From positions 1 to 64,000 of the forward strand of contig JASWJB010000185.1 of the NCBI GenBank assembly GCA_032433595.1: a DNA stretch of 64,000 nt. Direction: 5' to 3'. The notes below the pieces were generated by a model, which had not been told where the DNA came from, ran no database searches, and saw nothing but the letters and a program-made list of their open reading frames with translations. A program made the translations under genes and the position numbers. Positions 34,434 through 54,552 of this stretch are shown here, one piece after another. Numbering within the stretch: position 1 is the stretch's first letter; each line of letters opens with the position of its first letter. The DNA is from Conoideocrella luteorostrata. Its lineage: Eukaryota > Ascomycota > Sordariomycetes > Hypocreales > Clavicipitaceae.

Positions 34434-34449
34434 CGGGCGTAGAATTCCG
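34434..34449 (-). promoter_or_regulatory. CGG-N10-CCG element in the transketolase/SDR promoter (1)
   Basis: On the minus strand CGGAATTCTACGCCCG, differing from the aldehyde dehydrogenase site (41577) at 2 of 16 positions. It lies ~280 bp from the transketolase ATG and ~215 bp from the SDR ATG. It has the form of an inverted-repeat Zn2Cys6 dimer site. Confidence 0.65.
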
Positions 34450-34472
34450 GTCAGCAAACCCTTGGACGGCCA

Positions 34473-34488
34473 CGGAATCCTAAGTCCG
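34473..34488 (+). promoter_or_regulatory. CGG-N10-CCG element in the transketolase/SDR promoter (2)
   Basis: CGGAATCCTAAGTCCG, 23 bp after the first element. It keeps both CGG arms, the 10-bp spacer and the AA after the first arm, and is the most diverged of the seven copies in the right arm. Confidence 0.55.
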
Positions 34489-34665
34489 GGCACCCTTCAA
34501 GGGTGTACCCCAGTTTGGTTGCAAGCTTAAGTAGCGTATTCGATTTGTCCATGTAGTCGTCGACAATGCGATATTTGGCTACGATTGATTCGAAATTAAC
34601 ACAACTTCTGATCCCTTTAGCAACATTGAATACGACTGAGCTAAATCTTGCATTGTATATACGTG

Positions 34666-35626
34666 ATGGCTGCTTTGGTACCCGACACCAACAACTACTT
34701 GCGCCACTCCGTGCAGGACCTGCTGTCCCTCAAAGGGCGTGTTACGGTCATCACGGGAGGCGCTCGTGGCCTGGGTCTCGCATTCACCCTGGCCGTGGCT
34801 GAGGTTGGCGGTAGCGTCGCTATTCTGGATACCGCCGATAAACCTCACGAGCACTACTATGATATCCAGAAAAGGCACCCGGAGGTCAAACTCGGATACT
34901 ATCAGTAGGATGTTGATGCCGCCTCTCTTTCGTGGGCCTTACTCTAATCAGGGCATTGCAGGACGGATGTCACCGACTACGATCGTCTGCAGCAGACCTT
35001 CGATAAAGTCGTAAAGGACTTCGGTCGTATCGACGGCCTGTAAGACTACACCGCAGCCCTAGTTCACCCACATCGCTCACTCCTTATTCCACAGTGTCAC
35101 GGCCGCCGGAGTCTGTACGGATGAGTCTTTCTTGACAAGAGATCCCAAATCTGTAGCCAGGACTTTCAACATCAATATCAACGGCACCTATTATGCGGCT
35201 CAGCTTGCCGCCGCCCAGATGGCCAGGCAGAAACCCACAGAAGCCAACCCCCGCGGTGGCTCCATGGTGCTAATCGCTTCCATTGCTGCTTACGTAGCTA
35301 GCAAGGGTCAGAGCACGAGCGACTACTGCTGCAGCAAGGGTGCTGTCGTTGCTCTAGCAAAGGCCCTAGGTGTTGAATTGGCAGCTCATGGAATCAGGGT
35401 CAACAGCATTTCTCCCGGCTACATGTTGACGGACATGACTGTTCAGCAAGTCGCCCAGTTCCCTCACTTAGGCGAGATAATGAGGAACGAGCCGCCCATG
35501 AGGCGCATCGGCGACAGAACTGATCTCAAGACTCCAATTGTCTACCTTCTCTCCAACGCAAGCGCCTATCACACATCCGATGACATCCTTATTACAGGCG
35601 GCATCCATGCTGGAAGGCTCATGTAA
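34666..35626 (+). CDS. Short-chain dehydrogenase/reductase, polyol or ketose type
   Basis: Three exons, 34666-34904, 34962-35039 and 35095-35626, with donors GTAGGA and GTAAGA; 282 residues. The cofactor loop TGGARGLG follows the first strand, the NAAG-equivalent is VTAAGV, and the catalytic Ser...Tyr-x3-Lys appears as IASIAAY...YCCSK. Closest in style to fungal sorbose reductases, mannitol or arabinitol 2-dehydrogenases, which interconvert ketoses and polyols with NADP(H) or NAD(H). It is divergent from the transketolase and shares its promoter. Each piece alone looks truncated by a stop; splicing restores a full-length enzyme. The frame runs upstream to 34648 without an ATG, so 34666 is the start. 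Confidence 0.88.
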
Positions 35627-35799
35627 AGTTCTCCAAGGACAGCCATAAATTGAAGTTGGCAAAGTAATAATACAGTTTAGTTTGAAGCATAGTGGCTTCG
35701 AGTGACGAGGGGTTCCGACAAAAACTGATGAATGACGGTCAAATTCTCTGTCAAATTATATAGAAATCAAGGACAATTTTCCAATGCAAAGCATAGTTG

Positions 35800-36107
35800 A
35801 TTCGTAGCTGCCGCGTACCTCGATTTTGCCGAATTTTGCCGCACCGTGGTCTCGCTTTTTGCAGGGCTTTTGCAAGGCTTGTACACATATATACTCTGAT
35901 TACAGTGAGGGGGCGTTGACTGCATGCCTGCGTGTGCGGTCTTGGTCTGGATCCAGCAATAGAGGCTCGACACCAAGCACACCGACCGGCACGAAACCTG
36001 GCACATACGATGCAGAAAGGCCCGGCGTCCACGATAAACATGATGCCAGCCCGAGAAGTCCACAAATGCGCGCTCCCGGCCACTCTGCGGCGGGCAGCGC
36101 ATAAAAT
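35800..36107 (+). repeat. Dispersed repeat family E, copy
   Basis: Matches the copy at about 24.05-24.33 kb: 'ttgccgcaccgtggt', 'ctcgctttttgcaggg', 'acatatatactctgatt', 'gcgtgtgcggtcttggtctgg' and 'ggcacgaaacctggc'. It runs into the foldback at 36108. Confidence 0.6.
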
Positions 36108-36362
36108 GCTAGCGGGATGGGTGATTTTTCGATCGGGTTGTGAGCAGAAAAAGTAGAAGACTGTGGGCCGTGTCGTTGAGACTTGGACTACGTTCTTCTA
36201 GTAGATACTCTGTGCTGTACCTAGTACCAGTAGAGTGACTGCTTGAAGAGCGTAGTCCAAGTCTTAACGACACGGCCCACAGCCTCTTCCTTTTCCTGCT
36301 TACCGTCCACTCCTTTTTCTGCTCACAACCCGAGCGAAAAACCACCCATCCCGCTCGCAGGA
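36108..36362. repeat. Long inverted repeat (foldback) at the end of repeat E
   Basis: Left arm about 36108-36192 reads 'gcgggatgggtga' through 'gttgtgagcagaaaaag' and 'tgtgggccgtgtcgttgag'. The right arm about 36258-36362 is its reverse complement with one ~20-bp extra stretch. The spacer is about 65 bp. A shorter version of this hairpin ends the copy at 24.4 kb. Confidence 0.7.
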
Positions 36363-36981
36363 CCTCATTTTGGCCGATTGCTTGCCAGGTGTTTTGTTTC
36401 ATGCCTTGCTTTTTATTTCACCTCGCGCGCCGGGATCTTGTACATCTTTTGCAACAAGTTTGGATTTGTCTCGTGGTATTGCTGTTTTGTTGCGTTGTGT
36501 CATTGCGCTTATAAGCCCGATCGCTGGATTCCTGACTTAGCGGGTTCTTTTGTATATTGCGCTCCGGATGTGATTTTTTGGGCCGTGATTTCTATTGTAT
36601 CTTATGCGCTACGTTTTTCTGCATCTTGTGTGCTAGTAGTTGTGCTGTGTTGTTGTGTTACTCTAGTGTAACTTGCGAGCCTCGTATCGCTGGTCTGATT
36701 TTCTTGCACCTTAGGCGCTGACTCAGATCTAACACTTACCTAGGCAGCAACATCATCATCAGCAGCAGCGGCAGCATCATCATCATCAGCGGCATTATCA
36801 TTATTATCAGCAGCAGCGGCATTATCATCATTATCAGCTGACTCTTCCCGCCCTCGAGTGTCGACTTTTTCCCTCTGCCGACCGCTCCTATTTTAACCGT
36901 CTTTCTGACTGAAATCCTGACATGTGGCCACCATCATCGTCTTCAGATTGACTTGCGAGATCTGATGCTCCCTGCAGCGCC
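36363..36981. other. Repeat-derived tail with CAT/CAG/ATT microsatellite
   Basis: The first part resembles 19060-19110 ('ggacctcattttggccgatt'), so repeat E extends here. From about 36746 to 36838 there is an imperfect trinucleotide microsatellite of CAT, CAG and ATT units. The 142-codon open frame across 36243-36671 has no recognisable domain and overlaps the foldback. Confidence 0.45.
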
Positions 36982-37149
36982 TGTAAACCGCAGGGCTCCG
37001 GGTGACGAGGGTATCGATACCGGAAGGTGAAGCAAAACAATGTGCAAAACAATTCAATTTAGTGACTATCTAAGAGAGAAGAAGAAGAGGAAGAGGAATG
37101 ACCCGAGCGCGCCGCACAAAAGAGGCGTGCTAGGGTGGCCACGTGACCT

Positions 37150-37756
37150 TGTTGGAATATATAGGAGAGATTCAAGTTGATCTACATTGATGGGAAGAGC
37201 TGAGTTTGTTGCGTTATGTGTCTTCATAAGTAGGAGAAGGAGCGATTTGGCAACAGTGGAAATAGGCGGGAATAGACGTAATAGACGGAATAGACGGAAT
37301 AGACGGAATAGACGGAATAGATAAATTTAACGATATTGAAGAGTGTGAGCAGTGATATTGATAGATGATGTTCTGACTTGATAGATGCCCTCTGAAGGGC
37401 ATCGTGACCCTTCTATATAGTCCTTCAGCGACCGGGGTATTCCCTTGGATTTAGTGGCCTTAGGCCTACGTTCCTTGGCATCGTGCCACCTTCTTCCACT
37501 ATCGTACGAATCTAGCTAATACGAGGCATCGGTCATTTCTGTCATTTCCGAAGGTGCCACTCTATTCTCAACAGTGTTACATTGACGATGGATTAAGAAT
37601 CTCTCGTCTGACGGCTTCGTCCAAATCCCCAAGTTAATACCCCTACAATCCGAGACACGCCTGTCTCAGATTCCTGCCTTAGTCCCAGAGGTCACGTATC
37701 CTTTCTCTCACCGCCCGTGTATCCACACATCCGCTCCACACGTGTGTAATCCAACT
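37150..37756 (+). mobile_element. Solo LTR, family B, itself split by LTR C
   Basis: Starts TGTTGGAATATATAGG at 37150 and ends ATCCAACT at 37756 (the final A changed to T), with GACCT duplicated at 37145-37149 and 37757-37761. Its own sequence is 37150-37206 plus 37574-37756; the rest is LTR C. Confidence 0.85.
37207..37573 (+). mobile_element. Solo LTR, family C, nested in LTR B
   Basis: 367 bp from TGTTGCGTTATG to TTCTCAACA, flanked by gagtt and gtgtt (an imperfect duplication). It includes a tandem of the 9-bp unit GACGGAATA (about 37268-37323) and the conserved 'ttccttggcatcgtgccacc' block. Confidence 0.8.
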
Positions 37757-37801
37757 GACCTTGTCTATAATTGCTTGTATGCTGGACGAGGGATTCCAAC
37801 A

Positions 37802-38236
37802 GCTGCCCTCGGTCGGAATGCCGCCGGGTGTGACGTCGATGCAGGTCTCGGTCTCCGTTATTAGGAACTCTTAGGCATGAGCAAACCAATCAAGGAGATG
37901 AGCATGTCATAGCGCTCGGTCATCAATTTCCGAGATTCATACATTCCAACCACGCCCGGTGGCTAAGCCAATAGGGCAACTGTAATTAATGAACTTGCGT
38001 TTCCCAAATGAGTCGTCACTCAAAAAAGCCCATACCTGTCAGACTCAACTTCTCAACCCACTTTAGCGGTACCAGCTTCGGTCTGCTCTCAGTACACTTA
38101 GAACATTGTAGAGGGTGGCTGTATTAGTCTACCGTAGTCATTTGCCTATAAACTTCTTCTTCGCATGGTCAATCTCTGTGAAAATTCTGTCTTTTTTATC
38201 ACGCGCGAACGCCTGAAAGATCATTCCATAAGGTTG
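37802..38236. other. Intergenic, no supported gene
   Basis: No feature recognised beyond the presumed 3' region of the kinase gene. Confidence 0.4.
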
Positions 38237-39595
38237 CTAAAGGAGAGGCGTCAGTTCCTGATAGATAAAATTGTGAAAAGAACATTCAAAAGTCCTTACT
38301 GGCTCTAGCAGAAATACCGTATCTTCAGGAATTGGCATCTCGGGCAGGTCCTCTCTTTGTAGATCTAAAAAATACGACAATAGGACACGAATAATTGCAC
38401 GGTGAGAAATGACTAGTAGATGTTGTTTAAACCTCTCGAGTTCTACGATCATCGGTCTCAGTCGCTTGATAACATCTGCATACGCCTCTCCCCCGAGACC
38501 TGGCCATCGATAGAGAAGCTTGTGCTGTTTACGTGCTCTATACACCTCAGGAAAGTTCTCTCGAATCTCCTCGAATGTTGCGCCTGCCATATCGCCAGCA
38601 TTGATATCATCCAGCATTTTCTGCTTCGTCTTCTTAAAAATATGGTCCGGAAAAGCTTCCGCTGTTTGGGAGGCCTGAGGCATTGTCGACGTCCAGATGC
38701 TGAGCTTGCTGAGTGGTCTTCCTGCTGTTTCCCGGTGCCATGCGCCGTTTTGGTCCTGCACGAATTTCGCAAGATCCTCAGCGTATTTTTTTCCAGAAGC
38801 GCTGAGATTAGAATCTCTTCCTATTCGACCTGCTGCATCATCCTCACTCTGGCCACCACACGATAACCAGATTTGTCGGTCTGTAAGGTTAAAGCCGATC
38901 ATGTATTCGACCACTTGCGAAGACAAGACGCCTTGAATCATGTGTGTGTTTAGCTTGCGGCCAACATCGATGATTTTGACGTAGGACATATTCTCGGCCT
39001 CTTCATCCTCACTAATCGTAGTGTATGCCCGTTCATATAAAGCGACTCGTTGCTTGAAATCATTGAGTGCATGCTGCGGGTCTTGCGTGCTGTAGTCTGG
39101 ACTGGAAAGTTTCAAGACAAAGTTTCTCTCCAGAACTACAGGATCTGAGCAGCAGCTCTCTAGGAACAGTACTGGCACATCTGGCCCACTGAGGTCCCTT
39201 ATGCGCTGAAGGATCAACCTGCGTCGTTGGCGGGTGCTATTGGTGGCGTCGAGGATTCCCACACAGCTGTTGTCCTGCTTTAACCACTCGATCAGCTCGT
39301 TCAGAACGTTAAGAGCAATCTCATCGCGTTTCGACACATTTTCCTTGATACGAGGGTCGAAAAAAGATGATGGCGAGGCGCTGTGTGGTGCGGACTGAGT
39401 ATCCTCGCTGGACGCTAGAGCTGCTTTTCGTCTAAGCTCTCCAGCATTGAAGATCCTAGTAGATTTTTGTAGCCAATTGAGATAACGAGCGAGCTTCTTC
39501 ACAATGAAGCTTTTCCCCCTTGTAGGTAGTCCCACCATCACAATCACCAGTCGCGAGGATAAATCTGGCATGTTACTACAGACATCGTTCATCAT
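38237..39595 (-). CDS. 6-phosphofructo-2-kinase with degenerate bisphosphatase domain
   Basis: 452 residues. The kinase half is intact: Walker A GLPTRGKS at residues 22-29, YLNW, GILDATNSTRQRR, FLESCC and the SPDY block. It would make fructose-2,6-bisphosphate, the activator of PFK-1 and inhibitor of fructose-1,6-bisphosphatase. The C-terminal half aligns with the histidine-phosphatase domain, but the RHGE box that accepts the phosphate is SCGGQSE (about residues 243-249), and the TS-x-L-x-R-T segment is TSTMPQASQTA. The later His in SHRAIIR remains. So the phosphatase is probably dead and the protein kinase-only. A 42-bp GTAAGG..TATCAG segment near the 3' end could be a tiny intron but is in frame either way. 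It is divergent from the tartrate dehydrogenase gene. Confidence 0.9.
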   Translation of the reverse strand: MMNDVCSNMPDLSSRLVIVMVGLPTRGKSFIVKKLARYLNWLQKSTRIFNAGELRRKAALASSEDTQSAPHSASPSSFFDPRIKENVSKRDEIALNVLNELIEWLKQDNSCVGILDATNSTRQRRRLILQRIRDLSGPDVPVLFLESCCSDPVVLERNFVLKLSSPDYSTQDPQHALNDFKQRVALYERAYTTISEDEEAENMSYVKIIDVGRKLNTHMIQGVLSSQVVEYMIGFNLTDRQIWLSCGGQSEDDAAGRIGRDSNLSASGKKYAEDLAKFVQDQNGAWHRETAGRPLSKLSIWTSTMPQASQTAEAFPDHIFKKTKQKMLDDINAGDMAGATFEEIRENFPEVYRARKQHKLLYRWPGLGGEAYADVIKRLRPMIVELERFKQHLLVISHRAIIRVLLSYFLDLQREDLPEMPIPEDTVFLLEPVRTFECSFHNFIYQELTPLL

Positions 39596-39782
39596 GGTAT
39601 CAACGTGGGATGCTGCGTTATTGACTGCTAGAGTATAAATTTGAGTCTGTTTATTCTCTTTTTAACAAAATGCTCACTAGAGTCGTTGGATTGTCTTTGA
39701 AGCTATGTATGTTGGTGGCGAACGTGTGGGGCAAGCCGCCGGGCCACGGCCCCGAACACTGTGTCATCCATCTCCGTCGCCC

Positions 39783-39798
39783 CGGAAATCGCTTCCCG
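39783..39798 (+). promoter_or_regulatory. CGG-N10-CCG element between PFK-2 and tartrate dehydrogenase
   Basis: CGGAAATCGCTTCCCG, ~190 bp from the kinase ATG and ~275 bp from the dehydrogenase ATG. It matches the monooxygenase site at 14 of 16 positions. Confidence 0.65.
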
Positions 39799-40072
39799 AA
39801 ATCAGGACGGAGCCGTGGGTAGAAAGTAAGTACTGCGATTTCAGGATGATCGAGTTATCTGCCATCCCGATTAATGCTAGTCGCATCGGACATCAAATCA
39901 AATTATTTTTTCCTCCGAGATATGTAGAACTCCCGATATTTTAGGCGGCACCACTTGAAGCAAATAACCCTATAAAATCGGAGAATATCCTGTATTCACC
40001 ACTTTGCAGTCACATATCGCAACGATAATTGAAACACCATTTGAAGAATTATCGCTTTGTGCGCATATTCTA

Positions 40073-41213
40073 ATGATGTCGTTGCGTCAACACAAGATTG
40101 CTACTATCCCAGGGGATGGTATCGGGGTAGAGGTTGTGGACGCTACACTCAAGGTCCTCCAAGCTTTGCAGGATATGCACCAAACCTTTACTCTCAATAT
40201 CGAACCTTTAGACTGGAGCTCCAAGAACTATCTCATCACTGGCACTTATATACCCGAGTCTGCATGGCCCAAGCTCAAAGCCTACGACGCAATTTTGTTT
40301 GGCGCCGTAGGATCTCCAGGTGAGCACCCTTGCGCTTCAGGACACATGTGTGCTAATAGTATTGAAAGACGTTCCCGATGATATTTCGCTGTGGAAACTC
40401 ATTCTGCCGCTGCGCAAAAGATTGAATCAGTACATCAATTTAAGGCCGATTCGCGTGCTGCCGGGGCTTTCTTCACCCTTGAAAAGCTGTGCTCCTGATC
40501 AACTGGACTGGGTGATTGTCCGTGAAAACAGCGAGGGTGAATACGCCGGCCAAGGCGGAGTAAGCCATGAAGACACGCCGTATACAATTGCCAATGAAGT
40601 CGCCGTTTTCACTCGGACTGCGATAGAGCGAACTATGCGTTTCGCGTTCGAAGTGGCGGATTCTCGACACCGGAAGAAGCTTACCATGGTTACGAAGAGC
40701 AACGCGCAACGATTCGGGCTGGTACTCTGGGACCAGATCTTCTACGAGGTGGCCAAAGATTATCCGCAGGTGGAGACTGACAGAATGCTGGTCGACGCAA
40801 TGACGGTCCGGATGGTGCTGAAGCCACAGAGCCTGGATACGGTTGTGGCTACGAATTTACATGGAGACATTCTATCGGATCTGGCGGCGGCACTGGCCGG
40901 CAGCATTGGTGTCGCGCCTTCCAGCAATCTCGACCCCACAAGGAAGTTTCCCAGCATGTTTGAACCAATCCACGGCAGTGCTCCGGATATCGCTGGGATG
41001 GGCATTGCTAACCCGTTGGCGACGTTTTGGAGTGCGGCTGAGATGCTGAGGTGGCTCGGGGAGGGGGATGCGGCAGACCACCTGATGCGAGCGATCGAGG
41101 AGACCACGCAAAGTGATGTTAGAACACCAGATTTGCAGGGCTCAGCCACTATGATGGATGTGACGAACAAGGTTATTTGGGCCATTCAAAACACACTTCA
41201 CTATAACCAGTAG
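40073..41213 (+). CDS. Tartrate/D-malate dehydrogenase (isopropylmalate DH family)
   Basis: Two exons, 40073-40319 and 40369-41213, with a 49-bp GTGAGC..AAAG intron; 363 residues. N-terminal IATIPGDGIGVEVV is the family start. DWVIVRENSEGEYAGQGG is characteristic of the tartrate dehydrogenase/decarboxylase (TtuC) and D-malate branch, not of LeuB. The Mg/NAD signature NLHGDILSDLAAALAGSIGVAPSSN and HGSAPDIAG are present. It would oxidise and decarboxylate a 2-hydroxy dicarboxylic acid with NAD. Two adjacent ATGs (40073, 40076) are possible starts; frames further upstream have no ATG. A TATA-like 'ctataaaatc' lies near 39970. There is no obvious mitochondrial leader. Confidence 0.9.
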
Positions 41214-41290
41214 CTTTTAACTCAGGGGGTACATTCGATGCGCTTTCAAAAAAGGTCTTTCGAACCTGCTAAACACACATCCCGTGTAAT

Positions 41291-41527: not shown

Positions 41528-41576
41528 GTAATGATTGATAACCGATGTTTCCACTAGAGTAGCTCCAAGACCGGGA

Positions 41577-41592
41577 CGGAATTCGACTCCCG
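41577..41592 (+). promoter_or_regulatory. CGG-N10-CCG element upstream of aldehyde dehydrogenase
   Basis: CGGAATTCGACTCCCG, 225 bp before the ATG at 41817, just inside the promoter segment left after LTR B inserted. With its next three bases it matches the PFK-2 site over 16 of 19 positions. Confidence 0.65.
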
Positions 41593-41816: not shown

Positions 41817-43555
41817 ATGGCGCCCACAACTAACTATCACACAAATGCTATTTCCAAGGTAAGTATAGTCTTCTGTTCAATCAGGTGATGCTGGAGACAT
41901 TTCATTAAAAATGGAACCAGCTCAAAAATCCAGCTTTGTTCATTCAAGATGCTTTCATCGATGGAAAGTGGACACCTAAAGAAAAGAAGTTTGATATATA
42001 CGGTAAGTGCCACGGCATGAGCATCTGCACTGTCATCGCGCTGATCGGGTTTCTCCAGAACCATCAACGGCGACAGTGCTCGGCCAAGTGAGCGATTGCG
42101 CACTCGACGACTTTCAGCAGGCAATTTTCAGTGCTGTTGAGGCCCAAGAAACCTACTTCGAATCTACTACCGCCTCGCAGCGAGGTTCCCTTCTACGAAA
42201 ATGGAATGACCTGATCTTGGCCAACGCTGATGACTGTAAGTGGATATACTCAGCCTTCCGTGTCCGTGGTCCGACCTGTACATGTACTAATGAAGGACTC
42301 CAGTGGCTGTCATTCTAAGTCTCGAGAATGGCAAGACGCTCCCCGAAGCAAAGGGAGAGGTACTGTACGCAGCAAGCTTTATCTCTTGGTTCGCTGAAGA
42401 AGCGACACGATCATACGGCGCCAGCATCCCCTCCTCAACACCACACACAACTTTGACCACAGTGCGCGAGCCTGTCGGTGTCTGCGCCATCATCACCCCT
42501 TGGAACTTCCCCGCAGCTATGATCACGAGAAAGATTGGCCCAGCATTGGCCGCTGGCTGCTCAGTCGTGATCAAGCCGCCCAGTGAGACCCCGTACAGCT
42601 GTCTGGCACTAACGAAACTCGCCATCGAAGCGGGATTGCCACCAAAGACGATTCAAGTCTGCCCGACAAAGGACAGGCAGGCGGCTGCTGAGCTGATTAC
42701 TAGCCCTCTTATTTCAAAGATTTCTTTCACCGGGTCGACTGAGGTCGGAAAGAAGTTCGCTCAACTTGCCGCCGGAACCTTGAAAAGGGTTAGCTTGGAG
42801 CTTGGTGGCAATGCGCCTTTCATTGTCTTTGATGACGCCGATGTCGATCTTGCCGTGGAAGGCGCTATGTTCTGCAAGTACCGCTGCTCAGGCCAGACAT
42901 GCGTGTGGTAAGTGGCTCCCAGGTGCAGCTCGAACCCCTGCAACAAGGGAAGGCTAATCCCCATGACAGCGCCAACCGTTTATATGTCCAGAAGGGCATC
43001 GCTCCAGCTTTCACTGCCAAACTGACAGAGAAGGTCAAGACGCTGCAGATGGGCAGCGGTCTGGACAAGTCATCCACGCAAGGGCCGCTTGTGAACAGGG
43101 CAGCTGTGGACAAGGTACACCAGCACGTGCAAGATGCTTTGTCTCGTGGTGCCAAGATTGAGATCGGAGGCAAGGCTCCCGATAAGCACGGCTTCTTCTT
43201 CGAACCCACCGTGCTGTCGGGCGTTACACAGGATATGGTGGTCAGCAAGGAAGAGACTTTTGGGCCCCTGGCTCCCATTTTCCAGTTTGAGACTGAGCAG
43301 GACGCGATCCGTCTCGCCAATGATACCGAATTTGGCCTGGCCGGGTACTTCTTCTCTAAAGACGTTGGTCGCGTCATGCGCGTTGCTCACAAGCTGAAGG
43401 TCGGCATGATTGGCGCTAACACGGGCAAGATCAGTGCTCCCGAAGCCCCTTTTGGAGGTGTCAAGGAAAGCGGCTATGGCAAGGAGGGAAGCTTGTACGG
43501 TTTGGCTGAATACCAGAACATCAAGAGCATTACCATTGGTAACCTTGACAAGTAA
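41817..43555 (+). CDS. Aldehyde dehydrogenase, succinate-semialdehyde class
   Basis: Five exons, 41817-41858, 41921-42002, 42059-42235, 42304-42907 and 42970-43555, all with GTAAGT/GTAAGTGG-type donors and CAG acceptors; 496 residues, the normal family length. PWNFPAAMITRKIGPALAAGC is the NAD(P)-binding region, SLELGGNAPFIV holds the general-base Glu (about 267), and GQTCVCANR holds the nucleophilic Cys (about 300) beside the fourth intron. FTGSTEVGK and the PFGGVKESGYG..G..Y C-terminal block fit succinate-semialdehyde-type dehydrogenases. It oxidises an aldehyde to the acid. In this cluster it may handle an aldehyde from sugar or sugar-acid breakdown instead of GABA-derived semialdehyde. Confidence 0.92.
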
Positions 43556-44658: not shown

Positions 44659-44674
44659 CGGAAATGGCATCCCG
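44659..44674 (+). promoter_or_regulatory. CGG-N10-CCG element upstream of the monooxygenase
   Basis: CGGAAATGGCATCCCG, 165 bp before the ATG at 44839. It matches the transporter site at 15 of 16 positions although the surrounding promoters are otherwise unlike. A shorter relative, CGGAATATCCCG, lies ~25 bp upstream on the other strand (about 44624-44640). Confidence 0.7.
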
Positions 44675-44838: not shown

Positions 44839-46869
44839 ATGGCACCCTCAGTTGTTGATCCGGTCCGGGACACGGTCGTCCCGTTGGCCAACCCACAGTC
44901 GAAGACCGTTTTACTTGGCCACGATAACGTGGCTAAGCCCGTGGAGGATGACTTCATGTACGATTTCAAGTACAATCATCCCCTGCCAACGACCGACGTC
45001 CTTGGCTTGGACATCCCCGACGATTGTGACGCTCAGAAGGAAGCCGAACGCATCGTCGCTCATCTCTCTGAGTCAACTGCCAAGGCAGATGCTTCTGCGT
45101 TCGCTGACCTTTTTCTCGACTATGGTAAGACTCCCCATACAGAAAGAGTCTTATCACCATGGGATTTGGGTGCTAAAACAGAATCACAGGCGTGTGGCGT
45201 GATAAATTGTCCTTCACTTGGGATCACCGTACTTTCAACTTCCGCGACGCAATTTATAAGGCTGCTTCCGACTTGTTAGATCAAACTGGAGCCACCAACT
45301 TTTCCTTTCTCAACCCTGCACCAAAGGTTGATCGCCCCTATGATGGTTATTCACAGCTGCAGTTTGTTGTTAGATTCGAGACCAAGCTAGTCCATGCATC
45401 GGCTGTCATTAATGCAGTCCTTACTAAGAACGGCTGGAGGATCTACATGATGCACACTGTTGCGGAAGGTCTCCTCCAGTTCCCAGAGCAGCCTGCTCCA
45501 GATGGACACATGACTGGTGTCGTCAGCTGGGCGGCACAAAGAGCCAAGACGGTTGATACCGCCGACCCTGAGGTCTTGGTCATTGGTGGAGGCCAGAAGT
45601 AAGTGCTTTCCACTTGTGTCCCTTCCTTACCTATTGCTGACCATCTCATGTAGCGGTCTTGCTCTAGCAGCACGCTGCAAGATGCTCGGAATGGACACCT
45701 TGATAATTGAACAGAGTGACGAGATCGGCGATGTTTGGAAGAAGCGATACGAATACCTCTCTCTCCATTTCCCACATTGGCCAGATGCCCTTCCATACTT
45801 CAATTATCCCCAACATTGGCCAACATACACTCCCGCACAAAAGCAAGGTCTATACATGTCGTGGTATGCCTCGGCGCTCGAGCTCAACGTCTGGACTAGG
45901 TCAACAGTTGCCACGGCTGATCGGCAAGACGATGAGTGGACTGTGACAATCAACAAGCATGGTGACACTCGCACGCTTCATCCAAAGCATGTTGTCATGG
46001 CCACTTCGCTTTGCGGCCTCCCATCGACCCCGGAAATCCCTGGTATGGCTGACTTCAAGGGTGTTATCCGCCACTCCACTGCTCACACTTCTTCCCGTGG
46101 ATTCAAGAAGGTCTGTGTTGTCGGCACGGCTTCCTCTGGGTTTGACACGGCCTACGAATGTGCGCGCTTGGGTATCGACGTTACCCTCGTGCAGCGGTCT
46201 CCCACCTACATCATGTCTTTGACTCACTCCGTCCCCCGCATGATGGGCAACTACGCCCCGGGCGAGGATGGTAGCCGCCCTAACATAGAAGACCAAGACC
46301 GAATCTTTTTCCATACCCCTATTGGTCCCGGAGAGGAACTAAGCAGGCGTTTGACTAAGACGCTGGAGGACTTGGATAGACCGTTGCTTGAGGCTCTGAA
46401 CGCCCGTGGACTCCGGACCTGGCGTGGCCAGCGTGGTACCGGTACCGCGACTCTTGGAGCAACCCGCAACGGAGGTTTCTACTTCGATGCCGGTGCTTGC
46501 GAGGAGATCATCAACGGCAACATCAAGGTCGAGCAGGGGTACATCAAGCACTTCACAGAGGACAAGGTGACCTTGGGCGGCGAGAGCGAACGAGAGCGAG
46601 AGTTCGATCTGGTTGTGTTCGCGACAGGCTTCACCAACACCATTGATTCCATCCGAGCCACCCTTGGTGAGAAGATTGCGAGGCAAGTCGGGCCAATTTG
46701 GGGTGTCGACGAGGAGGGAGAGTACAAGACGGCTTTCAGAGAAACTGGTGTGAAGAACCTGTGGCTCATGGTTGGCTTCCTTCCCATGACCCGCTTCTTT
46801 TCGAGACCACTAGCACTGCGCTTGAAGGCTTTGAGTGAAGGCATCTCCCCCCCTCCATACAAGATCTAG
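44839..46869 (+). CDS. Flavin-containing monooxygenase with N-terminal extension
   Basis: Three exons, 44839-45124, 45190-45598 and 45654-46869; 636 residues. The N-terminal ~225 residues form an extra domain resembling an NTF2/SnoaL-like fold (VWRDKLSFTWDHRTF). The FAD loop VIGGGQNGLALAA follows at about 227-240, then the W-RY-L-LH block (WKKRYEYLSLHFPHW), the FMO-type FKGVIRHSTAH, the NADPH loop VVGTASSGFDTA near 385 and FATGF near the end. These mark a class B flavoprotein monooxygenase that adds oxygen to a small molecule using NADPH. Its substrate and its role in the cluster are unknown, but it carries the shared CGG element. The stop codon lies inside an ATCTAG tandem. Confidence 0.88.
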
Positions 46870-47397: not shown

Positions 47398-48964
47398 ATA
47401 TGGTGTAGCAGTGATTTGGACTTCTCCTAGACCGATGCGAAGTTTGGGGACCCCGCGGGGCATGGCACCCAACTTTTTTCCTCTTCGTAGTTCATCACAT
47501 AGCGTAACTAGATTCTGTCTAGCAGACTCTGGCTGAAGCTCGAATGTTGATACAACGCATACCAATCACGCCTCTTATATCTAGAAAAGCAAGGCGATGG
47601 CAATGGCTGCCTTATGACATGCGGTTCACACAGATACTGATGAAAGGCCCGCATCGAAATACGTCTAGATTGCGTTTGTTCCTTGAGACACCCAGAAGAT
47701 GCCTTGATGGAAAGAAATCCTCAAGAACTAATTGCAAGACCTATGCACATGCAACAGGGCTCGCTACAATGGCTCGATGTTGTCGAAGCATGGGTTTCAA
47801 AATTATTGACTAGGACTTGTCTTGATGAAAAAGACTTCTTCCAGATCATTGATTTCGACACAGTTGGTCTGTTAGTCTAGGCAGAGAACGGAAGCAATAC
47901 CACATTGCCGCAAGTAGAGCAACAACCCTTCGCTCGAAGTTACAGTTCGCCCTGGCCCGGAGAAGCGGCATTCACAGAGCCGAAACAAGATTGACCGGTA
48001 TTTGGAACAATAGAAACTCGTTGCGGGTGAACGTCTACAATGTTGGTGCGCACTGGCCCCCCCACTCCCCCTTCCTTCATAGTAATTGGCTTTCAACGAC
48101 CCGCGCAATGTTACGACCATCACAGTCTTGTCGTGCCTGCTACTAGCGAGAATCTCGAGGGCGCTTCGATGCTGTAACTGTTGATTGGGCTATAAGTATA
48201 AGCACTAGAACGCTTCGTACGTAAGCGAACTCTAACCTTCGAAACCATTTTTCACAGAGGAGAAATTAGAATTTATTCTCAACATTGGGGATGAGTTAAA
48301 TACAAGCTCAACGCTGTAGTCATAGCTCGGCACGAAACGAGCCTAAACGCTGCCAGCTGGATTCGAACAGACAGTCGACTTCTCTGGCTCGCCACCGAAG
48401 CCTTGAACTTCTCTTTGCCTCGGCGAACGTCGCTATTGGCCATGAACCCACAGTACCAGGGAGATGGCACTGATCGTATCTTTGAAGTTTCTGTTCTCTA
48501 CACTATTGATTTCGAATCAGCTCTAGGCCATCCAAGGCCACTGCCAGGCGAATCATCACGTTCCATTAGGGATGCATACTCGGTATATTTTGTGCTCCGA
48601 TTCGGAATGGCAAATCCGAACAGCCCCACACTTTCTCAAATTGCGCACTACCGCGCTCGAAAGTAATTCCTATTGGCCAAGTGCAGCGCGTCCCCACTCT
48701 TGCTGAACAACCACACTGGCCTATTGTGCATTGTATGATCACACTAAACCGCGACGTGAGGGCGACGCTTAAATCCAGACAATACGACTCAGGGCAAGAC
48801 TGATATTCCTCGGGCATCCTTCTTACAGTAGCAGATATATTTCCTCGAAATCTTCTTGCCAATTATCAGCGCATGGGATTTTGCCGAAGTCTTTTCGTAT
48901 AATTGGCCAATCTGGTGGTTGCACCCAAAGTGTCTGCCTGGTGTGTCATTGAAATTAACACCAA
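47398..48964. other. Intergenic, possible decayed coding sequence
   Basis: Overlapping frames at 47544-47880 (including LQWLDVVEAWVSKLL...DFFQIIDFDTVGLLV) and 48403-48666 look partly coding but show no known domain, no clear start and no intron pattern. I cannot call a gene. I saw no CGG-N10-CCG element upstream of the aldo-keto reductase relic. Confidence 0.35.
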
Positions 48965-50076
48965 ATGACGCATGAACGATTAGTTTTAAACACTGGTGCT
49001 GAGATTCCAGCTTTAGGCCTTGGTACATCTCGGCTGCTGAGTTATTACCGTATTGTACTGACACGATTACAGGGACCTGGCAAAGTAAGCCAGGACAAGT
49101 GGCTAATGCCGTCCTGCACGCCCTGCGATCTGGCTACAGGCATATTGATGCTGCTTACTGCTATGGAAACGAGTAAGAAGTAGGGGCTGGCTTAAAGGCA
49201 GCATTTGATGAAGGCGTTGTAAGAAGAGAAGACGTCTTTGTTACCACCAAACTTTGGTATACTTATCACACCAGAGTGGAGGAGGGGTTGGACAGAAGCC
49301 TACAAAACCTGGGACTCGACTACGTCAATCTTTACCTTGTTCATTGGCCTGTTGCTTTGAACCCAAACGGTATGGTAGTGAAGTCGGAAGGTTGGAGAGC
49401 TACGCTAAATTGTTGCCAGGAAATGACGACAAATTTCCGAGTCTACCGAGCGTGAAACGCGATTTATATCTTCAACGATCCCATACGGAGACATGGAAAG
49501 ACATGGAGGCTGTTTTTGCGGCAAGGAAGGCCAAGGCTATCGGGGTTGCCAACTATAGCCTGTCGTATTTGAAAGAACTGTTGACAACGGCGAAGATTAT
49601 GCCGGCTGTCAATCAGATGGAGAATCATCCATTGCTGCCTTAGCAAGAGATAATCGACTTATGTGACTGGAGGAGGATTCACGTGACAGCCTATAGCCCG
49701 TTGGGTAGCGCTGGTAGCCCTCTCTTAGAGCTTCCTGTCATCCAACATATTGCTACAAAGAAGGGCGTCTCTCCAGCCGCCGTACTTCTCGGATGGCATA
49801 GTAAGATCTATAACTCTGAAAGAGTAGCAGTTCAAGAGGTTCGCTAACTACAGTTTAGTTTCCACCCGTCGATCTGTATTAGCAAAGTCTGTAAGGCCAA
49901 GCCGGATCACGGAGAACTTTAACTTGATTAAATTATCCAAGGATGAGGTGGTTGCTATTGAGACTATAGCAAAAAACATCACTCAAAGGGAAGGTTTTAC
50001 GCGCTATGTGTATCCTTCATTTGGCGTCTATTTCGGATTTCCTGATAAGCGCGAACAGCATCGAGTTGTAGCATAG
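48965..50076 (+). pseudogene. Aldo-keto reductase, inactivated
   Basis: Begins [20 protein letters not shown], has an intron (about 49020-49072, GTACAT..ACAG), then [11 protein letters not shown] with the catalytic Asp and Tyr, VTTKLW with the Lys and LYLVHWP with the His. It ends FGVYFGFPDKREQHRVVA after a second intron near 49801-49859. Three lesions break it: TAA right after YGNE (near 49171), a frameshift between about 49370 and 49430, and TAG after HPLLP (49640-49642). Both stops could be Gln codons changed by C-to-T. The parent would have been an aldose or xylose reductase-like NADPH enzyme, matching the polyol dehydrogenase downstream. LTR A begins two bases after its stop codon. Confidence 0.85.
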
Positions 50077-50077
50077 C

Positions 50078-50294
50078 TGTTGGAAATATCCCGTCATGAC
50101 ACACCGGCAGGCACGTGGGCAAGTCACGGAGTCACCCTGGTGCGCACCTTTTATACAGCGCGGGCATGGATCTTCTTCTTCTTCTTCTCTTCCTTTTCTA
50201 GATATGATCAGATGAATTGAATTGCTTTGCACGTTGTTTTGCTTCACCCTCCGGCATCGATTCCCTCGTCACCCGAAGCTCCGTGCTTCCTACA
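50078..50294 (+). mobile_element. Solo LTR, family A, between two aldo-keto reductase relics
   Basis: 217 bp from TGTTGGAAATATCCC to CGTGCTTCCTACA, with the 'ggcaggcacgtgggca' variant shared with 19190-19385. No target duplication. Confidence 0.78.
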
Positions 50295-50476
50295 CTTACA
50301 CATTCTGTATGCGCTAAGAAAGTAACGCCAAACCGTATTATGAATGACGTAAATCTCGTTGAGCTGTCCAAGGGTGGCATGGATCTCATCGAAGCTTCAA
50401 TGAAAGGCAGTGCTGCCACGTGTTATATTTATCCTGCGTTTAGTATCGACTTTAGTTTTCCTGATAAAAACCATTA
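50295..50476 (+). pseudogene. 3' tail of a second aldo-keto reductase
   Basis: Reads SVCAKKVTPNRIMNDVNLVELSKGG...YIYPAFSIDFSFPDKNH then stop. It aligns with the C-terminus of the relic just upstream (SVRPSRITENFNLIKLSKDE ... YVYPSFGVYFGFPDK) but is clearly a different gene. The 5' nine-tenths are missing, replaced by LTR A. Confidence 0.75.
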
Positions 50477-51022
50477 GTCCAGCAACCTAAGATCTGCTCA
50501 ACATGGAAAGATTAAGCTTAAATACTGCAAGAAGAAGAACAAAGTTCACTAAGAAATACATATTGGGCATCATATTAATCACATCTTGCCGAAAAGTGTA
50601 TCTTCTTGCATACGTGTGCGTGTTCAAAGCCAGTCGAAGTTGAGTATGCTTCCGAAAGACAACCGACGCATCGAATGCCATAGGGGCATGCAAATACACA
50701 AACGTCTCCGCCCATATTTCAGTGACCAGGTGAGGAGTTAATAGAGTATGAATTCTGTTACGGAGACTGTCGCATTTCTCCTTCATGTTTTAAGCTAACA
50801 TCACATGGTTAAGCCCGGATTGAGATTGGGTTGCAGGAGTTCCACAAGAGTTGGACATCCATTTCTAGATACTTATTGTTAGTAAAGCCCATGCACGTTT
50901 GATAAAATGAATATTTACACATGTACAGTTGTGCGCTGATCACAAACAGAATTTGCAAGCCTTCAGCAGCTTTCCCAGCTAGAGTGAAATGGTTTACCCT
51001 GGGTTAGTCGAGGAGGTGGGAT
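50477..51022. other. Intergenic, no supported gene
   Basis: No recognisable coding sequence; it leads into the promoter of the polyol dehydrogenase. Confidence 0.4.
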
Positions 51023-51038
51023 CGGGAATCGCCGCCCG
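51023..51038 (+). promoter_or_regulatory. CGG-N10-CCG element upstream of the polyol dehydrogenase
   Basis: CGGGAATCGCCGCCCG, 290 bp before the ATG at 51328; it matches the PFK-2 site at 13 of 16 positions. A CGG-N11-CCG arrangement (CGGGTCCAATGCTCCCG) also occurs ~55 bp downstream. Confidence 0.6.
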
Positions 51039-51327
51039 ACGTGGGCTCAGCTCCGCCACCCCCGTCACCCGGATCCAGGGAGATTGATCCACGGGTCCAA
51101 TGCTCCCGGAAAAACAAAACATGCCTAGGTGCAGAGGAGAGAAATGCAGCCAGCCCCATCAATTAGACCCTGTAGCTTTGGACGTTGGTTATTCCAGAGC
51201 CTAAATAAGAATCCGAGGGCGAGGAGGAAGTCCGTACTTATTTTAACCTTGTAACAGGAACTGATTCGGCATGCAAGAAGAACCTTGAGAAGCAGCAGTT
51301 CACTACAACGCCGCCAAAATCGTCGAC

Positions 51328-52556
51328 ATGTCTTCTCCCAATTTGTCAGCAGGTCAGTATCTTTATGCTGCTAAAGACTTACGCTTCGAAACACGCGAAA
51401 TTCCTACACCCGGCCCTGGCGAGGTAGTTGTCGCTGTTAGGTCTACAACGCTCTGCGGTTCAGACCTTCACTACTACAACCACTACAAAAACGGGTCTAT
51501 TCTCGTCCGCGAGCCATTGTGTTTAGGTCATGAGTCATCAGGAGAAATCGTTGCCGCTGGCGAGAAAGCCAGTCTGAAAGTAGGCGACCGTGTTGCGCTT
51601 GAGGTTGGAGTCCCTTGCCGAGAATGTGACCTCTGCAAAGCTGGCCGCTACAACATTTGCCCCCACCTTCGCTTCCGTAGCTCGGGCTCAAAATTCCCGC
51701 ATTACCAAGGGACGTTGCAAGAATACGTTTGTCATCCGGAAAGTTGGGTGCACCCGCTGCCAGAGAGTCTCGACTTTGAAGTCGGTGCCCTACTGGAGCC
51801 ATTGGCCGTAGCCGTTCAAGCCGTTCGTCGCATCGCCATGATTAGCTCCCCACAACCCGTTGAAAATGTTCTGATCTTCGGTGCCGGCGCCATTGGGCTT
51901 TTGACAGCTTTAGCTCTTCGCGCAACCGGGGTCAAGAATATTGCCATGGCCGACATCCACCTAGGGCGACTCAAGTTCGCGAGGGAGAATGCCTTTGCTT
52001 CCATAATTTATGAGGTCAAACCAAAGTCTGCGGCGTCAGTTGATGACGCTATGAGTGTGGCGAAGGACGTGGCCCAGGATATGGGAGAGCTGCAATGGCC
52101 ACATGACAAGACGATCAATAAGTTTAACGTGGTGTTTGAATGCACTGGCGTTGCTTCATGTATACAAACATCCATATACGTGAGCTTTTTACTCTAATCA
52201 TTGCATAGTTTACTGCTAAATTCAGCATTTAGGCAACTAAATCTGGCGGCTATGTGGTAGTAGCTGGTCTAGGAACCCCCAACATCACAATTCCCATATC
52301 CGAAGCTTCTGCCAGAGAGATCACTATCGTTCCCACCTGGAGGTACGCCAACGCCTATCCAGAAGCCATGAGAGTCGCAGAAGCCTCGGTCAAAAGTTTT
52401 GCGTTGGGCGCAGAGCAGAAGTTGCCTGACATCCGAAAGCTTATTACCCATCGGTTTGAGGGACTAGATTCTGTTCCTGATGCATTTGCTCTTGCTGGTG
52501 CTTCAGGGGATTCCAAGGGTGGCGTGGTCATCAAGACCGTAGTCAACTGCGCTTGA
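51328..52556 (+). CDS. Zinc-dependent sorbitol/xylitol-type dehydrogenase
   Basis: Two exons, 51328-52179 and 52233-52556, with a 53-bp GTGAGC..TTAG intron; 391 residues. Catalytic zinc ligands are in LCGSDLHYY and GHESSGEI; the structural-zinc lobe CRECDLCKAGRYNIC has all four cysteines. The NAD-binding loop is GAGAIGLL, followed by MADIH, whose Asp favours NAD over NADP. These fit medium-chain polyol dehydrogenases (sorbitol, xylitol, L-arabitol), which oxidise a polyol to a ketose in the cytosol. About 30 residues longer than the shortest members because of an insertion near residues 230-265 (PKSAASVDDAMS...). It carries the cluster's CGG element and follows two aldo-keto reductase relics. 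Confidence 0.92.
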
Positions 52557-53831
52557 AAGGCACGTTGTAGGATTCAAACATATTTTTGGCTGAAAGAGCT
52601 ACTAAATAGACTCTTGTAATGTCACCTTGCCTGAAAAGGCTGGGGCGCCTCTCGCGGGTCCCGCCAGGTGTGTGCGCCCCCAAGTAAGCATGTATCTATG
52701 TGAAGCACCAGTCCTACCTGTCCCTTCTGAACCTGGAAATCGAAGTAAGTCATTAGCATTCGACATTGCGGCAGCCTATATGATGAGTGTTTTGAAAATG
52801 GAGAGGATAGTTCAAGTGGTATTACGGATATATATGTGTCAATTGAAGACTTAGGAAACCGCCTCTCAAATAGCCGCTTCTATCTATCCATACGCACATT
52901 CCTGCCAGCCAACGCTTCAATATACTTGCGAACCTTTGCCTCAATCTGCTGCTCCTCTAGACCGGACGTGTGTGGTTCCTCATCTTACGCCCAATCACGA
53001 AGGATCGCTACGCGCAATCCGCATCTGCGTGATCTCGTCAACACGGAGATCACCGCGCTCACTCTGGATCGCTCCGTGATCCCCATGAGCTTCTCTGAGC
53101 CATCTAGTATATAGACGCACCCAAGACGCCCCCAGTAGAGCTACTCTCAGCTCCTTAGCTATCAATAACATAGTCACCGATTGACTTGCCTTTCTAGTTA
53201 CCACGTCTCGCACTTCGACTGTGGCACGCGACGGTAATACTCATTGCTCAGTATTGACATCCTAGAACATCAACCGACTTCACTCTTCAGCTCCCCTACA
53301 GCCGAAGCCCAAACGTCACAAAGAAGTGGCCCTTCACCTTCCCCTACTTTATTGCTTTCTTGGCACCCAACTGTTAACAAAGTAGCCTAATTTGCACCTA
53401 TCTGCCTGACATTCATACTGTGAACCCCTTTCAAGCGCGCACTGCCCATCTTAAGGCAGCTTCCAGCCCGCCGCCCGCCGTAGATAGCTTTGACCTAGGC
53501 ATCCATACTCCAGTTAACTTAGCGGAAGGAGCCGCTCTGCTCTTCTCAGAAACGCTCCGGCCGTAATATGCCGCTCGATTAGCACCCCGCCACCCTTAGG
53601 TAGGGTGGCTACCATCCTCAACACTCCGTGCTCTATCAAAGAGCTGCAGCGGCGGAAGGCGCTCAGCGCACCAGCCCTCCTCAATCGCGGAGTCAGCGAA
53701 TCGGATTATGCGCGGGCATACCGAATCGTCCAATGCCAAGCTCCGAATGTTTCATGTTTTTTGTGAAGCGTTCGACGCGACCGCTCGGCGATTCACCGCC
53801 GAAGCAGATGTCGCAATCGCCCAGAAACTCT
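52557..53831. other. Intergenic with a transketolase fragment; otherwise no gene
   Basis: Apart from the relic at 52881-52980 I see only decayed, partly GC-rich sequence. A plus-strand stretch at 53405-53840 reads protein-like in pieces (AVDSFDLGIHTPVNLAEGAAL, then FDATARRFTAEADVAIAQKL) but has stops and no known domain; it could be an old retroelement. Confidence 0.4.
52881..52980 (-). pseudogene. C-terminal relic of a second transketolase
   Basis: Minus strand reads GLEEQQIEAKVRKYIEALAG then RNVRMDR and a stop at 52881-52883. The intact transketolase ends GLDAKAIEAKVRKYLGYLNG-KNARMVG..., so the match is unmistakable over ~25 residues. Nothing upstream on that strand is recognisable. Confidence 0.7.
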
Positions 53832-54011
53832 CACATTGATGATTGAAGAAGAATCCCTCGTCTGACGGCCTCGTCCAAATCCCCCTATAAATCCCCCTAC
53901 AATCCAAGACACGCCTGCCTGGGATTCCTGCCTTAGGCCAAGAGGCCACTTATCCTTTCTCTCACTGCCCGTGTATCCACACATCCACTCACACACACGT
54001 GTTATCCAACA
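53832..54011 (+). mobile_element. Solo LTR, family B, 5' truncated
   Basis: Retains 'gaagaagaatccctcgtctg', the TATA 'ccctataaatcc', 'cgtgtatccacacatcc' and the end GTTATCCAACA. The first ~60 bp are missing. Confidence 0.7.
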
Positions 54012-54127
54012 GCTACACATATCTACCAAGGTCTTGAGCCGGAATATCGGCCCTCGCAAGTTAAATCCGAGACTAGCCTACGCTATGCGTGATAGCGCTG
54101 AAACGACTCTCCGAGGGTTCGGAATAC

Positions 54128-54318
54128 TGTTGGAGTCCATCGTCAAGGTCACGTAGTCACCCTAGCGCGCCGTATAAAAGAGGCGCGCTAGGTTGCATAC
54201 CTCCTCTTCTTCTTCTCTCTTGGATAACTATGATCAAATGAATTGAACACTTTGTTTTTACGTATTGCTTCGTGCGAGAACCTTTTGACGTCAATCAGAA
54301 ACCCCTGTGCTTCCTACA
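54128..54318 (+). mobile_element. Solo LTR, family A, with target duplication
   Basis: 191 bp from TGTTGGAGTCCATCG to CTTCCTACA, flanked by a perfect AATAC duplication (54123-54127 and 54319-54323). It is ~500 bp upstream of the sugar transporter. Confidence 0.88.
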
Positions 54319-54536
54319 AATACTGTCCCGTTTTTTGAACCATATAGTATAGAGCTACTTGTCTACCTCTAGGCAGCTCAAAGTCGTGCCGTGGCTCTAA
54401 TCCTTCCGGATTCAGCTTGTGTTTCTAATAACTCAAGGCGGCAGTAGAGGGAAGGCTCAACCAGTAGGAATTGCTCATCCGACATTAGTGCTACAGGCGA
54501 ACTGGGGAAAAATATGGGTCGCTGTTCGGAAATGCC

Positions 54537-54552
54537 ATCCCGCACCAGCGTC
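54537..54552 (+). promoter_or_regulatory. CGG-N10-CCG element upstream of the sugar transporter
   Basis: CGGAAATGCCATCCCG, 263 bp before the ATG at 54815; 15 of 16 positions match the monooxygenase site. A compact palindrome, GCGGAATCCGC, lies nearer the gene at 54669-54679. Confidence 0.7.

What the first reader, a model, noticed from the sequence alone, without database searches (positions are those of the whole stretch)
34434..54552. A shared CGG-N10-CCG palindrome marks an eight-gene regulon
Seven 16-mers of the form CGG-N10-CCG lie in the promoter regions of transketolase/SDR (34434-34449 minus, 34473-34488), PFK-2/tartrate dehydrogenase (39783), aldehyde dehydrogenase (41577), monooxygenase (44659), polyol dehydrogenase (51023) and sugar transporter (54537). 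They agree beyond the CGG arms: consensus CGGAAWTSSMHTCCCG, with the 44659 and 54537 copies identical at 15 of 16 positions in otherwise unlike promoters. Zn2Cys6 proteins bind paired CGG triplets at fixed spacing, and one is encoded next to the transporter at 57092-60049. The inference is a single pathway regulon with a spacing-10 inverted site.
Basis: partly seen in the sequence, partly recalled or inferred. Interest (0 to 1): 0.87.

Follow-up and report, generated by a model that had tools for sequence, protein, structure and literature searches.

The report
Shared operator of fungal catabolic cluster
Eight similar 16-base DNA sites sit in front of nine neighbouring metabolic genes (one of them probably broken) of an insect-killing fungus, most likely as the docking site of a regulator protein encoded next door, so the genes are probably switched on together; this is a well-supported new example of a familiar kind of fungal gene switch.

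Summary
The window lies in Conoideocrella luteorostrata (contig of 87,721 bases). An eighth, 48603-48618, was missed: it lies before an aldo-keto reductase frame with in-frame stops. All seven enzyme/transporter promoter regions carry at least one site, 172-356 bases before an ATG. CGG-N10-CCG occurs 10 times in 9.1 kb of cluster promoter DNA against 1.5 expected; no other inverted spacing exceeds 5. Left out one at a time, each of the eight outscores all 36 other N10 pairs examined. The tight form CGGAAWT-N4-TCCCG occurs 11 times in the genome, four of them here. The neighbouring Zn2Cys6 gene reads through and has no close paralogue; some of its relatives lie on the same contigs as transketolase or PFK-2 relatives in other fungi. 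Best reading: a pathway-specific regulator with a Put3-like spacing-10 site. Binding and substrate are unproven, and conservation of the sites in other species could not be tested. It is a new member of a known kind.

The parts
34434..34449 (-). site 1, CGGAATTCTACGCCCG on the minus strand, between transketolase and SDR
   Evidence: leave-one-out
34473..34488 (+). site 2, CGGAATCCTAAGTCCG, same divergent promoter
   Evidence: weakest site (1 of 36 other pairs scores as high or higher with the symmetric matrix)
39783..39798 (+). site 3, CGGAAATCGCTTCCCG, divergent promoter of PFK-2 and tartrate-dehydrogenase-like gene
41577..41592 (+). site 4, CGGAATTCGACTCCCG, about 232 bases before the ALDH ATG (41817)
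44659..44674 (+). site 5, CGGAAATGGCATCCCG, 172 bases before the FMO ATG
51023..51038 (+). site 7, CGGGAATCGCCGCCCG, before polyol dehydrogenase
31978..34157 (-). transketolase (QQS21_008273), close relatives often annotated dihydroxyacetone synthase, 2 exons
   Evidence: Pfam (P0069)
34666..35626 (+). short-chain dehydrogenase, 3 exons as read by eye
   Evidence: Pfam
38237..39595 (-). 6-phosphofructo-2-kinase; phosphatase-domain Arg-His-Gly motif reads Cys-Gly-Gly, so probably kinase only
   Evidence: Pfam
40073..41213 (+). isocitrate/isopropylmalate dehydrogenase family, closest solved relative tartrate dehydrogenase (3flk)
41817..43555 (+). aldehyde dehydrogenase, best NCBIfam model succinate-semialdehyde type (each exon piece below the whole-protein cut-off)
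44839..46869 (+). flavin monooxygenase-like protein
48966..50079 (+). aldo-keto reductase frame with at least two in-frame stop codons; likely pseudogene (Pfam 22.6 bits on one piece, cut-off 24)
51328..52556 (+). zinc-dependent polyol (xylitol/sorbitol type) dehydrogenase
54815..56517 (+). sugar porter family MFS transporter
57092..60049 (+). Zn2Cys6 regulator TF1 (7-exon model; Zn cluster, short linker, coil-like stretch, Fungal_trans); proposed binder

Best explanation
The eight 16-mers are operators of one pathway-specific regulon. The Zn2Cys6 protein encoded at 57092-60049 most likely binds them as a dimer, one zinc cluster on each outward CGG, with the ten-base spacer set by linker and coiled coil and partly read itself (CGGAAW... 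on one side, ...(C/T)CCG on the other). An inducer then turns on uptake (MFS porter), oxidation of a polyol, sugar or sugar acid (SDR, polyol dehydrogenase, tartrate-dehydrogenase-like enzyme, ALDH, FMO) and entry into the pentose-phosphate and glycolytic pools (transketolase plus a probably kinase-only PFK-2 that would raise fructose-2,6-bisphosphate). Shown by computation: sites, placement, enrichment, shared inner letters, rarity of the tight form elsewhere, a regulator gene that reads through and has no close paralogue, and contig sharing of some of its relatives with relatives of two of the enzymes. Inferred: binding, dimer geometry, inducibility, substrate.
For: Sites in all 7 enzyme/transporter promoter regions, 172-356 bases before an ATG. 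At the genome density an N10 pair in a given 500-base stretch has chance 0.081, so 7 of 7 is about 2e-8 by a simple Poisson estimate. CGGRAW-N6-YCCG: 8 in 3,987 bases of proximal promoters, 0.046 expected from 534 genome matches (partly circular, as the pattern was drawn from the sites); spacings N6-N9 and N11-N14 give at most 1. Less circular: a pattern drawn from sites 39783 and 41577 with the central four bases left free (a choice made after seeing the other sites) finds 9 further places in 46.4 Mb, two of them in the FMO and MFS promoters. Of the 7 places outside the cluster, 4 fall inside open frames of 214-1005 aa. No promoter-wide similarity: between promoters the four blastn matches with E below 0.1 all lie on the sites. 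TF1 has no close paralogue: next best match in the genome 30% over part of the protein. Its DNA-binding region is strongly alike in the 9 of 11 aligned relatives that retain it. Of 68 TF1 relatives, 8 have a listed contig identical in length to that of a listed transketolase relative (small ones 13,757, 25,688, 58,485, 133,875 and 217,120 bases) and one to that of a PFK-2 relative (80,282; locus tags TPAR_02968 and TPAR_02975); transketolase and PFK-2 rows share 7 besides this contig.
Against: No binding or expression data. No site before TF1. A second Zn2Cys6 gene lies about 1.4 kb further on. Sites 34473 and 48603 score low (2.3 and 2.5 bits, against 5.3-10.2 for the other six). The flanking 2-hydroxyacid dehydrogenase (28.7-30 kb) has only an N10 pair at 30732 without the inner letters. 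Two further N10 pairs in the long region before the MFS gene (53558, 53786) lack the inner letters. Looser motif forms are no rarer than reversed controls by much, or not at all. Conservation in other species untested: scans for related loci found none. Most TF1 rows (59 of 68) shared no listed contig; three of the eight shared TF1/transketolase contigs are 0.48-9.3 Mb and four of the seven transketolase/PFK-2 ones are 0.7-3.9 Mb, where sharing says little; three of the eight have no species name, so rest on length alone; in Neopestalotiopsis the two locus tags are 424 apart.
Confidence: 0.75

Rival explanations
1. The sites are real operators but are bound by the second Zn2Cys6 protein (about 61.5-63.2 kb) or by a regulator encoded elsewhere.
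For: A second Zn2Cys6 gene is close by (Zn_clus 23.8 bits, cut-off 21). Zinc-cluster genes elsewhere can regulate a cluster.
Against: No coil-like stretch is evident after its zinc cluster, as judged by eye. Relatives of TF1 share contigs with relatives of the same enzymes; the second gene was not searched, so this comparison is one-sided. The tight motif is largely confined to this cluster, which argues against a global regulator.
Confidence: 0.15
2. Sites are left over from duplication of one promoter segment rather than kept by selection for binding.
For: Genes are neighbours; 44659 and 54527 differ at one base; the match between sites 4 and 1 runs five bases beyond the 16-mer.
Against: Information outside the 16-mer is low (at most about 1.1 bits a column, against 2 at the CGG arms) and blastn between promoters finds only short matches, the four best lying on the sites.
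Confidence: 0.04
3. Chance: a reader choosing among many CGG pairs found a pattern.
For: CGG pairs are common (7844 N10 pairs in the genome), raw N10 density over 20 kb is not exceptional, and the eight were picked from 17 pairs.
Against: Among inverted pairs only spacing 10 is enriched, all seven enzyme/transporter promoters are hit, and each held-out site outscores 36 of 36 other pairs.
Confidence: 0.03

Closest known systems
Put3 of Saccharomyces cerevisiae (proline utilisation), site CGG(N10)CCG
   Same: Zn2Cys6 protein, inverted CGG pair ten bases apart; the spacer is also read by the protein (passages of PMC5729217 seen). Spacer letters are shared among the sites here too.
   Different: Not shown to be an orthologue: in a PDB search Gal4, Lac9, Hap1 and Ppr1 score higher than Put3 against the TF1 DNA-binding region, all weakly. 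The enzymes here are not proline enzymes.
Gal4 (CGG-N11-CCG) and Ppr1 (CGG-N6-CCG) of yeast (spacings recalled, from no call)
   Same: Zinc cluster, linker, coiled coil, inverted CGG pair.
   Different: Spacing differs: here N11 has 2 pairs and N6 has 5, against 10 for N10.
Regulators of filamentous fungal catabolic clusters, such as the nicotinate hxn cluster (PMC5746545, start of abstract in a search listing only)
   Same: Clustered genes with their own regulator.
   Different: hxn uses a Cys2/His2 regulator; the present cluster has a transketolase and PFK-2 with unknown substrate.
Dihydroxyacetone synthase of methylotrophic yeasts
   Same: Several close relatives of the transketolase are annotated dihydroxyacetone synthase.
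   Different: Annotation only; no test of formaldehyde use. The C-terminus is WKQL, with no evident peroxisomal signal by eye.

Membership tests
Zn2Cys6 regulator (TF1) | six-cysteine zinc cluster of the Zn2Cys6 type (spacing rule recalled) | tested here: met
   CGPCRESKVKCDGAAPTCTSCETRGKQC after splicing; the cluster spans an intron and Pfam Zn_clus did not score on the raw pieces sent; 14 of the 68 listed relatives carry PF00172 by the precomputed column, by hand count
Zn2Cys6 regulator (TF1) | Fungal_trans middle domain | tested here: met
   PF04082, 36.3 bits, cut-off 23
Put3-type CGG-N10-CCG regulon | inverted CGG pair at spacing 10 in target promoters | tested here: met
Put3-type CGG-N10-CCG regulon | the neighbouring protein binds that site | not testable with these tools
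   needs gel shift or DAP-seq
Put3 orthologue | closest relationship to Put3 among Zn2Cys6 proteins | tested here: inconclusive
   Put3 ranks below Gal4, Lac9, Hap1 and Ppr1 among solved structures, but all scores are weak (20-25 bits)
pathway-specific catabolic gene cluster | regulator, transporter and enzymes linked, linkage kept in other species | tested here: inconclusive
   linked here; in other species contig sharing was looked at for TF1, transketolase and PFK-2 only, from capped lists (68 TF1 rows, 120 of 7998 transketolase rows, 63 of the 120 listed PFK-2 rows), and was found for a minority
pathway-specific catabolic gene cluster | co-induction by one substrate | not testable with these tools
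   no expression data
pathway-specific catabolic gene cluster | operators conserved in orthologous clusters | not tested
   no fungal DNA collection; related-locus scans found no relative
bifunctional PFK-2/FBPase-2 | phosphatase Arg-His-Gly catalytic motif (recalled) | tested here: not met
   Cys-Gly-Gly at the aligned place

The most novel reading that the evidence does not exclude
A widespread, uncharacterised Pezizomycotina catabolic regulon, read by a Zn2Cys6 family (2 of 68 listed relatives carry a NirA/Nit-4 name) through a spacing-10 site with a shared spacer, contains its own phosphatase-dead PFK-2. The regulator would then switch on not only the pathway but also the fructose-2,6-bisphosphate signal that pulls carbon into glycolysis: feed-forward allosteric control built into a gene cluster.
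Probability: 0.33. Interest if true: 0.66.

Novelty: new member of a known kind. Interest (0 to 1): 0.46.

Why it matters
It gives a concrete, testable DNA code for an uncharacterised group of fungal regulators and helps to draw the boundary of a pathway whose substrate is unknown. The operator can be used to ask which other genes belong and, by testing growth substrates against a reporter, which compound is degraded. The inclusion of a probable kinase-only PFK-2 in the regulon suggests that flux control of glycolysis can be written into a pathway cluster.

Tried and rejected
Chance and promoter duplication were tested and disfavoured. A regulon reaching beyond the cluster was looked for: of the seven outside matches to CGGAAWT-N4-TCCCG, four lie inside open frames (L001, L008, L009, L010). 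The other three (L006, L007, L011) lie outside frames of 130 aa or more; all such frames within their 1.5 kb on each side were scanned and gave only an endonuclease (L006) and an adaptin (L011) domain. Looser genome patterns gave no sign of a wider regulon: CGGAA-N7-CCCG 236 with reversed control 307, CGG-N10-CCG 7844 with control 12736, CGGRAW-N6-YCCG 534 with control 439; only the first 100 places of each were listed, so clustering elsewhere was not checked. The N10 pairs that follow the window on the contig (64175, 74863, 75625, 81043) were not tied to a cluster gene; 64175 lies over 2 kb before the first frame of 100 aa or more in L012. Linker length as proof of spacing 10 was dropped: the PDB alignments are too weak. 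A pathway assignment (formaldehyde, apiose, tartrate or polyol) was considered and left open; the tool evidence names enzyme classes only. Conservation of the sites in relatives could not be tested: scans of genome contigs and viral contigs with the TF1 alignment found no relative, and metagenome scans were capped at zero. Seven paper searches showed no description of this cluster in the titles and abstract starts listed; two searches listed only 10 of 601 and 12 of 56 matching papers, and the library holds open-licence papers only, so this is no proof of absence. The structure prediction, RNA-family and plasmid or phage tools were not used.
Full report
WHAT THE WINDOW IS. The window is bases 1-64000 of contig C185 (87,721 bases) of a 46.42-Mb assembly. 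Database records for its transketolase (97% over 94% of the query, which includes some non-coding read-through) and PFK-2 (100% over 94%) name Conoideocrella luteorostrata, on a contig of the same length. A draft genome announcement of this scale-insect pathogen exists (PMC12352038; abstract and outline seen).

THE OBSERVATION. One search finds 17 CGG-N10-CCG pairs in 64 kb. One more, 48603-48618, lies 356 bases before the start of an aldo-keto reductase frame. With it, every enzyme or transporter promoter region of the cluster (7 of 7, serving nine genes counting the aldo-keto reductase) holds at least one such pair, 172 to 356 bases from pair centre to ATG. None lies before the regulator gene.

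IS IT MORE THAN CHANCE. Eight promoter stretches (9,133 bases, TF1's included) hold 10 spacing-10 inverted pairs; first-order Markov shuffles give 1.5 on average and at most 6 in 1000. The genome-wide count, 7844, gives the same expectation, 1.54. Of the inverted spacings 0 to 25, the next highest count is 5. Direct pairs reach 9 at spacings 0 and 19, but direct pairs are commoner overall. In the proximal promoters (about 500 bases each) the count is 8 against 0.75 by shuffling, at most 5 in 1000. Genome-wide, CGG-N10-CCG is not enriched (reversed control 12736).

The inner letters agree as well. A matrix built from seven sites gives the eighth a score above all 36 other N10 pairs examined (27 from 17 stretches of 10 kb in the same genome, 9 from the rest of the window), for all eight sites; with a strand-symmetric matrix one site, 34473, is passed by one of the 36. 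Two caveats: the eight were chosen from the window's 17 pairs after seeing them, leaving out two promoter pairs (53558, 53786) that lack the inner letters, and 34434 was turned to fit. These patterns were drawn from the sites, so the counts describe rarity rather than test it. A less circular version takes the pattern from sites 39783 and 41577 (central four bases left free, a choice made after seeing the rest) and finds the FMO and MFS promoter sites among only nine further places. Sliding the spacing to N6-N9 or N11-N14 leaves at most one match. A 6-mer count made without the motif puts CCGGAA/TTCCGG first, 6 of 7 promoters, though this would not survive correction for the number of 6-mers. 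Single half-sites are only mildly enriched. N10 density alone over the 20 kb, 12 against about 3.4, is not exceptional among some 2,300 such stretches (hand estimate). Placement, spacing and inner letters carry the case.

NEIGHBOURS. The aldo-keto reductase frame at 48966-50079 has at least two in-frame stops; its Pfam score on one piece is just under the cut-off. Two Zn2Cys6 genes follow. The first, TF1, reads through without a stop in a seven-exon model.

WHO BINDS. TF1 has a zinc cluster, a short linker and a coil-like stretch in a region strongly alike in nine of eleven aligned relatives (the other two database models lack that end). It has no close paralogue in its genome. Some relatives of TF1, of the transketolase and of PFK-2 are listed with contigs of identical length: eight TF1/transketolase pairs, one TF1/PFK-2 pair (Tolypocladium paradoxum, locus tags seven apart) and seven transketolase/PFK-2 pairs besides this contig (Scytalidium lignicola, tags five apart). 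That is 9 of 68 TF1 rows; the lists are capped (120 of 7998 transketolase rows; 63 of the 120 listed PFK-2 rows entered). Three of the eight TF1/transketolase contigs are 0.48-9.3 Mb, and four of the seven transketolase/PFK-2 contigs 0.7-3.9 Mb, and say little; three have no species name; in Neopestalotiopsis the tags are 424 apart. So the regulator travels with the pathway in at least some species, which favours it as binder over the second gene, whose relatives were not searched. Binding itself is inferred.

HOW IT MOST LIKELY WORKS. A TF1 dimer places one zinc cluster on each CGG; the shared spacer letters suggest the spacer is also read, as reported for yeast Put3, whose site is CGG(N10)CCG (PMC5729217, passages seen). 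On an unknown inducer the seven promoter regions fire together. The gene content points to uptake and oxidation of a polyol, sugar or sugar acid and its passage through transketolase chemistry. The PFK-2 has Cys-Gly-Gly where the catalytic Arg-His-Gly of the phosphatase stands. The histidine is missing in 8 of 8 fetched PFK-2 relatives that share a listed contig with a transketolase or TF1 relative; but it is also missing in 5 of the other 6 fetched (P0190, P0207, P0223, P0272 and P0191, which lacks the stretch), so the loss is not specific to linked genes; only P0261, annotated PFK26, keeps it (read by eye). A kinase-only PFK-2 would raise fructose-2,6-bisphosphate and drive glycolysis; this is inference.

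AGAINST AND OPEN. No site before TF1; two weaker sites (34473, 48603); N10 pairs at 53558 and 53786 without the inner letters; no expression or binding data; no conservation test of the sites, since no fungal DNA was within reach. The substrate is unknown.

VERDICT. It is a new member of a known kind, with an unusual PFK-2 as the most interesting passenger.

Noticed in passing
38237-39595: The PFK-2 in the cluster has lost the phosphatase catalytic histidine (Arg-His-Gly reads Cys-Gly-Gly). 8 of 8 fetched relatives sharing a listed contig with a transketolase or TF1 relative have lost it too, as have 5 of the other 6 fetched: a kinase-only PFK-2 lineage that is at least sometimes linked to this cluster.
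   Followed up: partly
48966-50079: Aldo-keto reductase frame with in-frame stops but with an operator-like site still in front (48603); by eye, a fragment like the C-terminus of a second aldo-keto reductase lies at about 50340-50480.
   Followed up: partly
61480-63160: Second Zn2Cys6 gene beside the cluster, likely with an intron inside the zinc cluster; not searched for relatives.
   Followed up: no
28713-29965: D-2-hydroxyacid dehydrogenase gene next to the cluster, without an operator-like site; may or may not belong to the pathway.
   Followed up: no
L012 position 175 (contig C185 base 64175): CGGGATGCTTCTTCCG, alike to the operator on the minus strand, just past the window end, with no frame of 100 aa or more in the next 2.7 kb.
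   Followed up: partly
L037 (C25) and contig C37: Other transketolase-like genes of the genome: 40% identical at C25, and 57% over part of the protein at C37, the latter possibly a second member of the dihydroxyacetone-synthase-like group.
   Followed up: no
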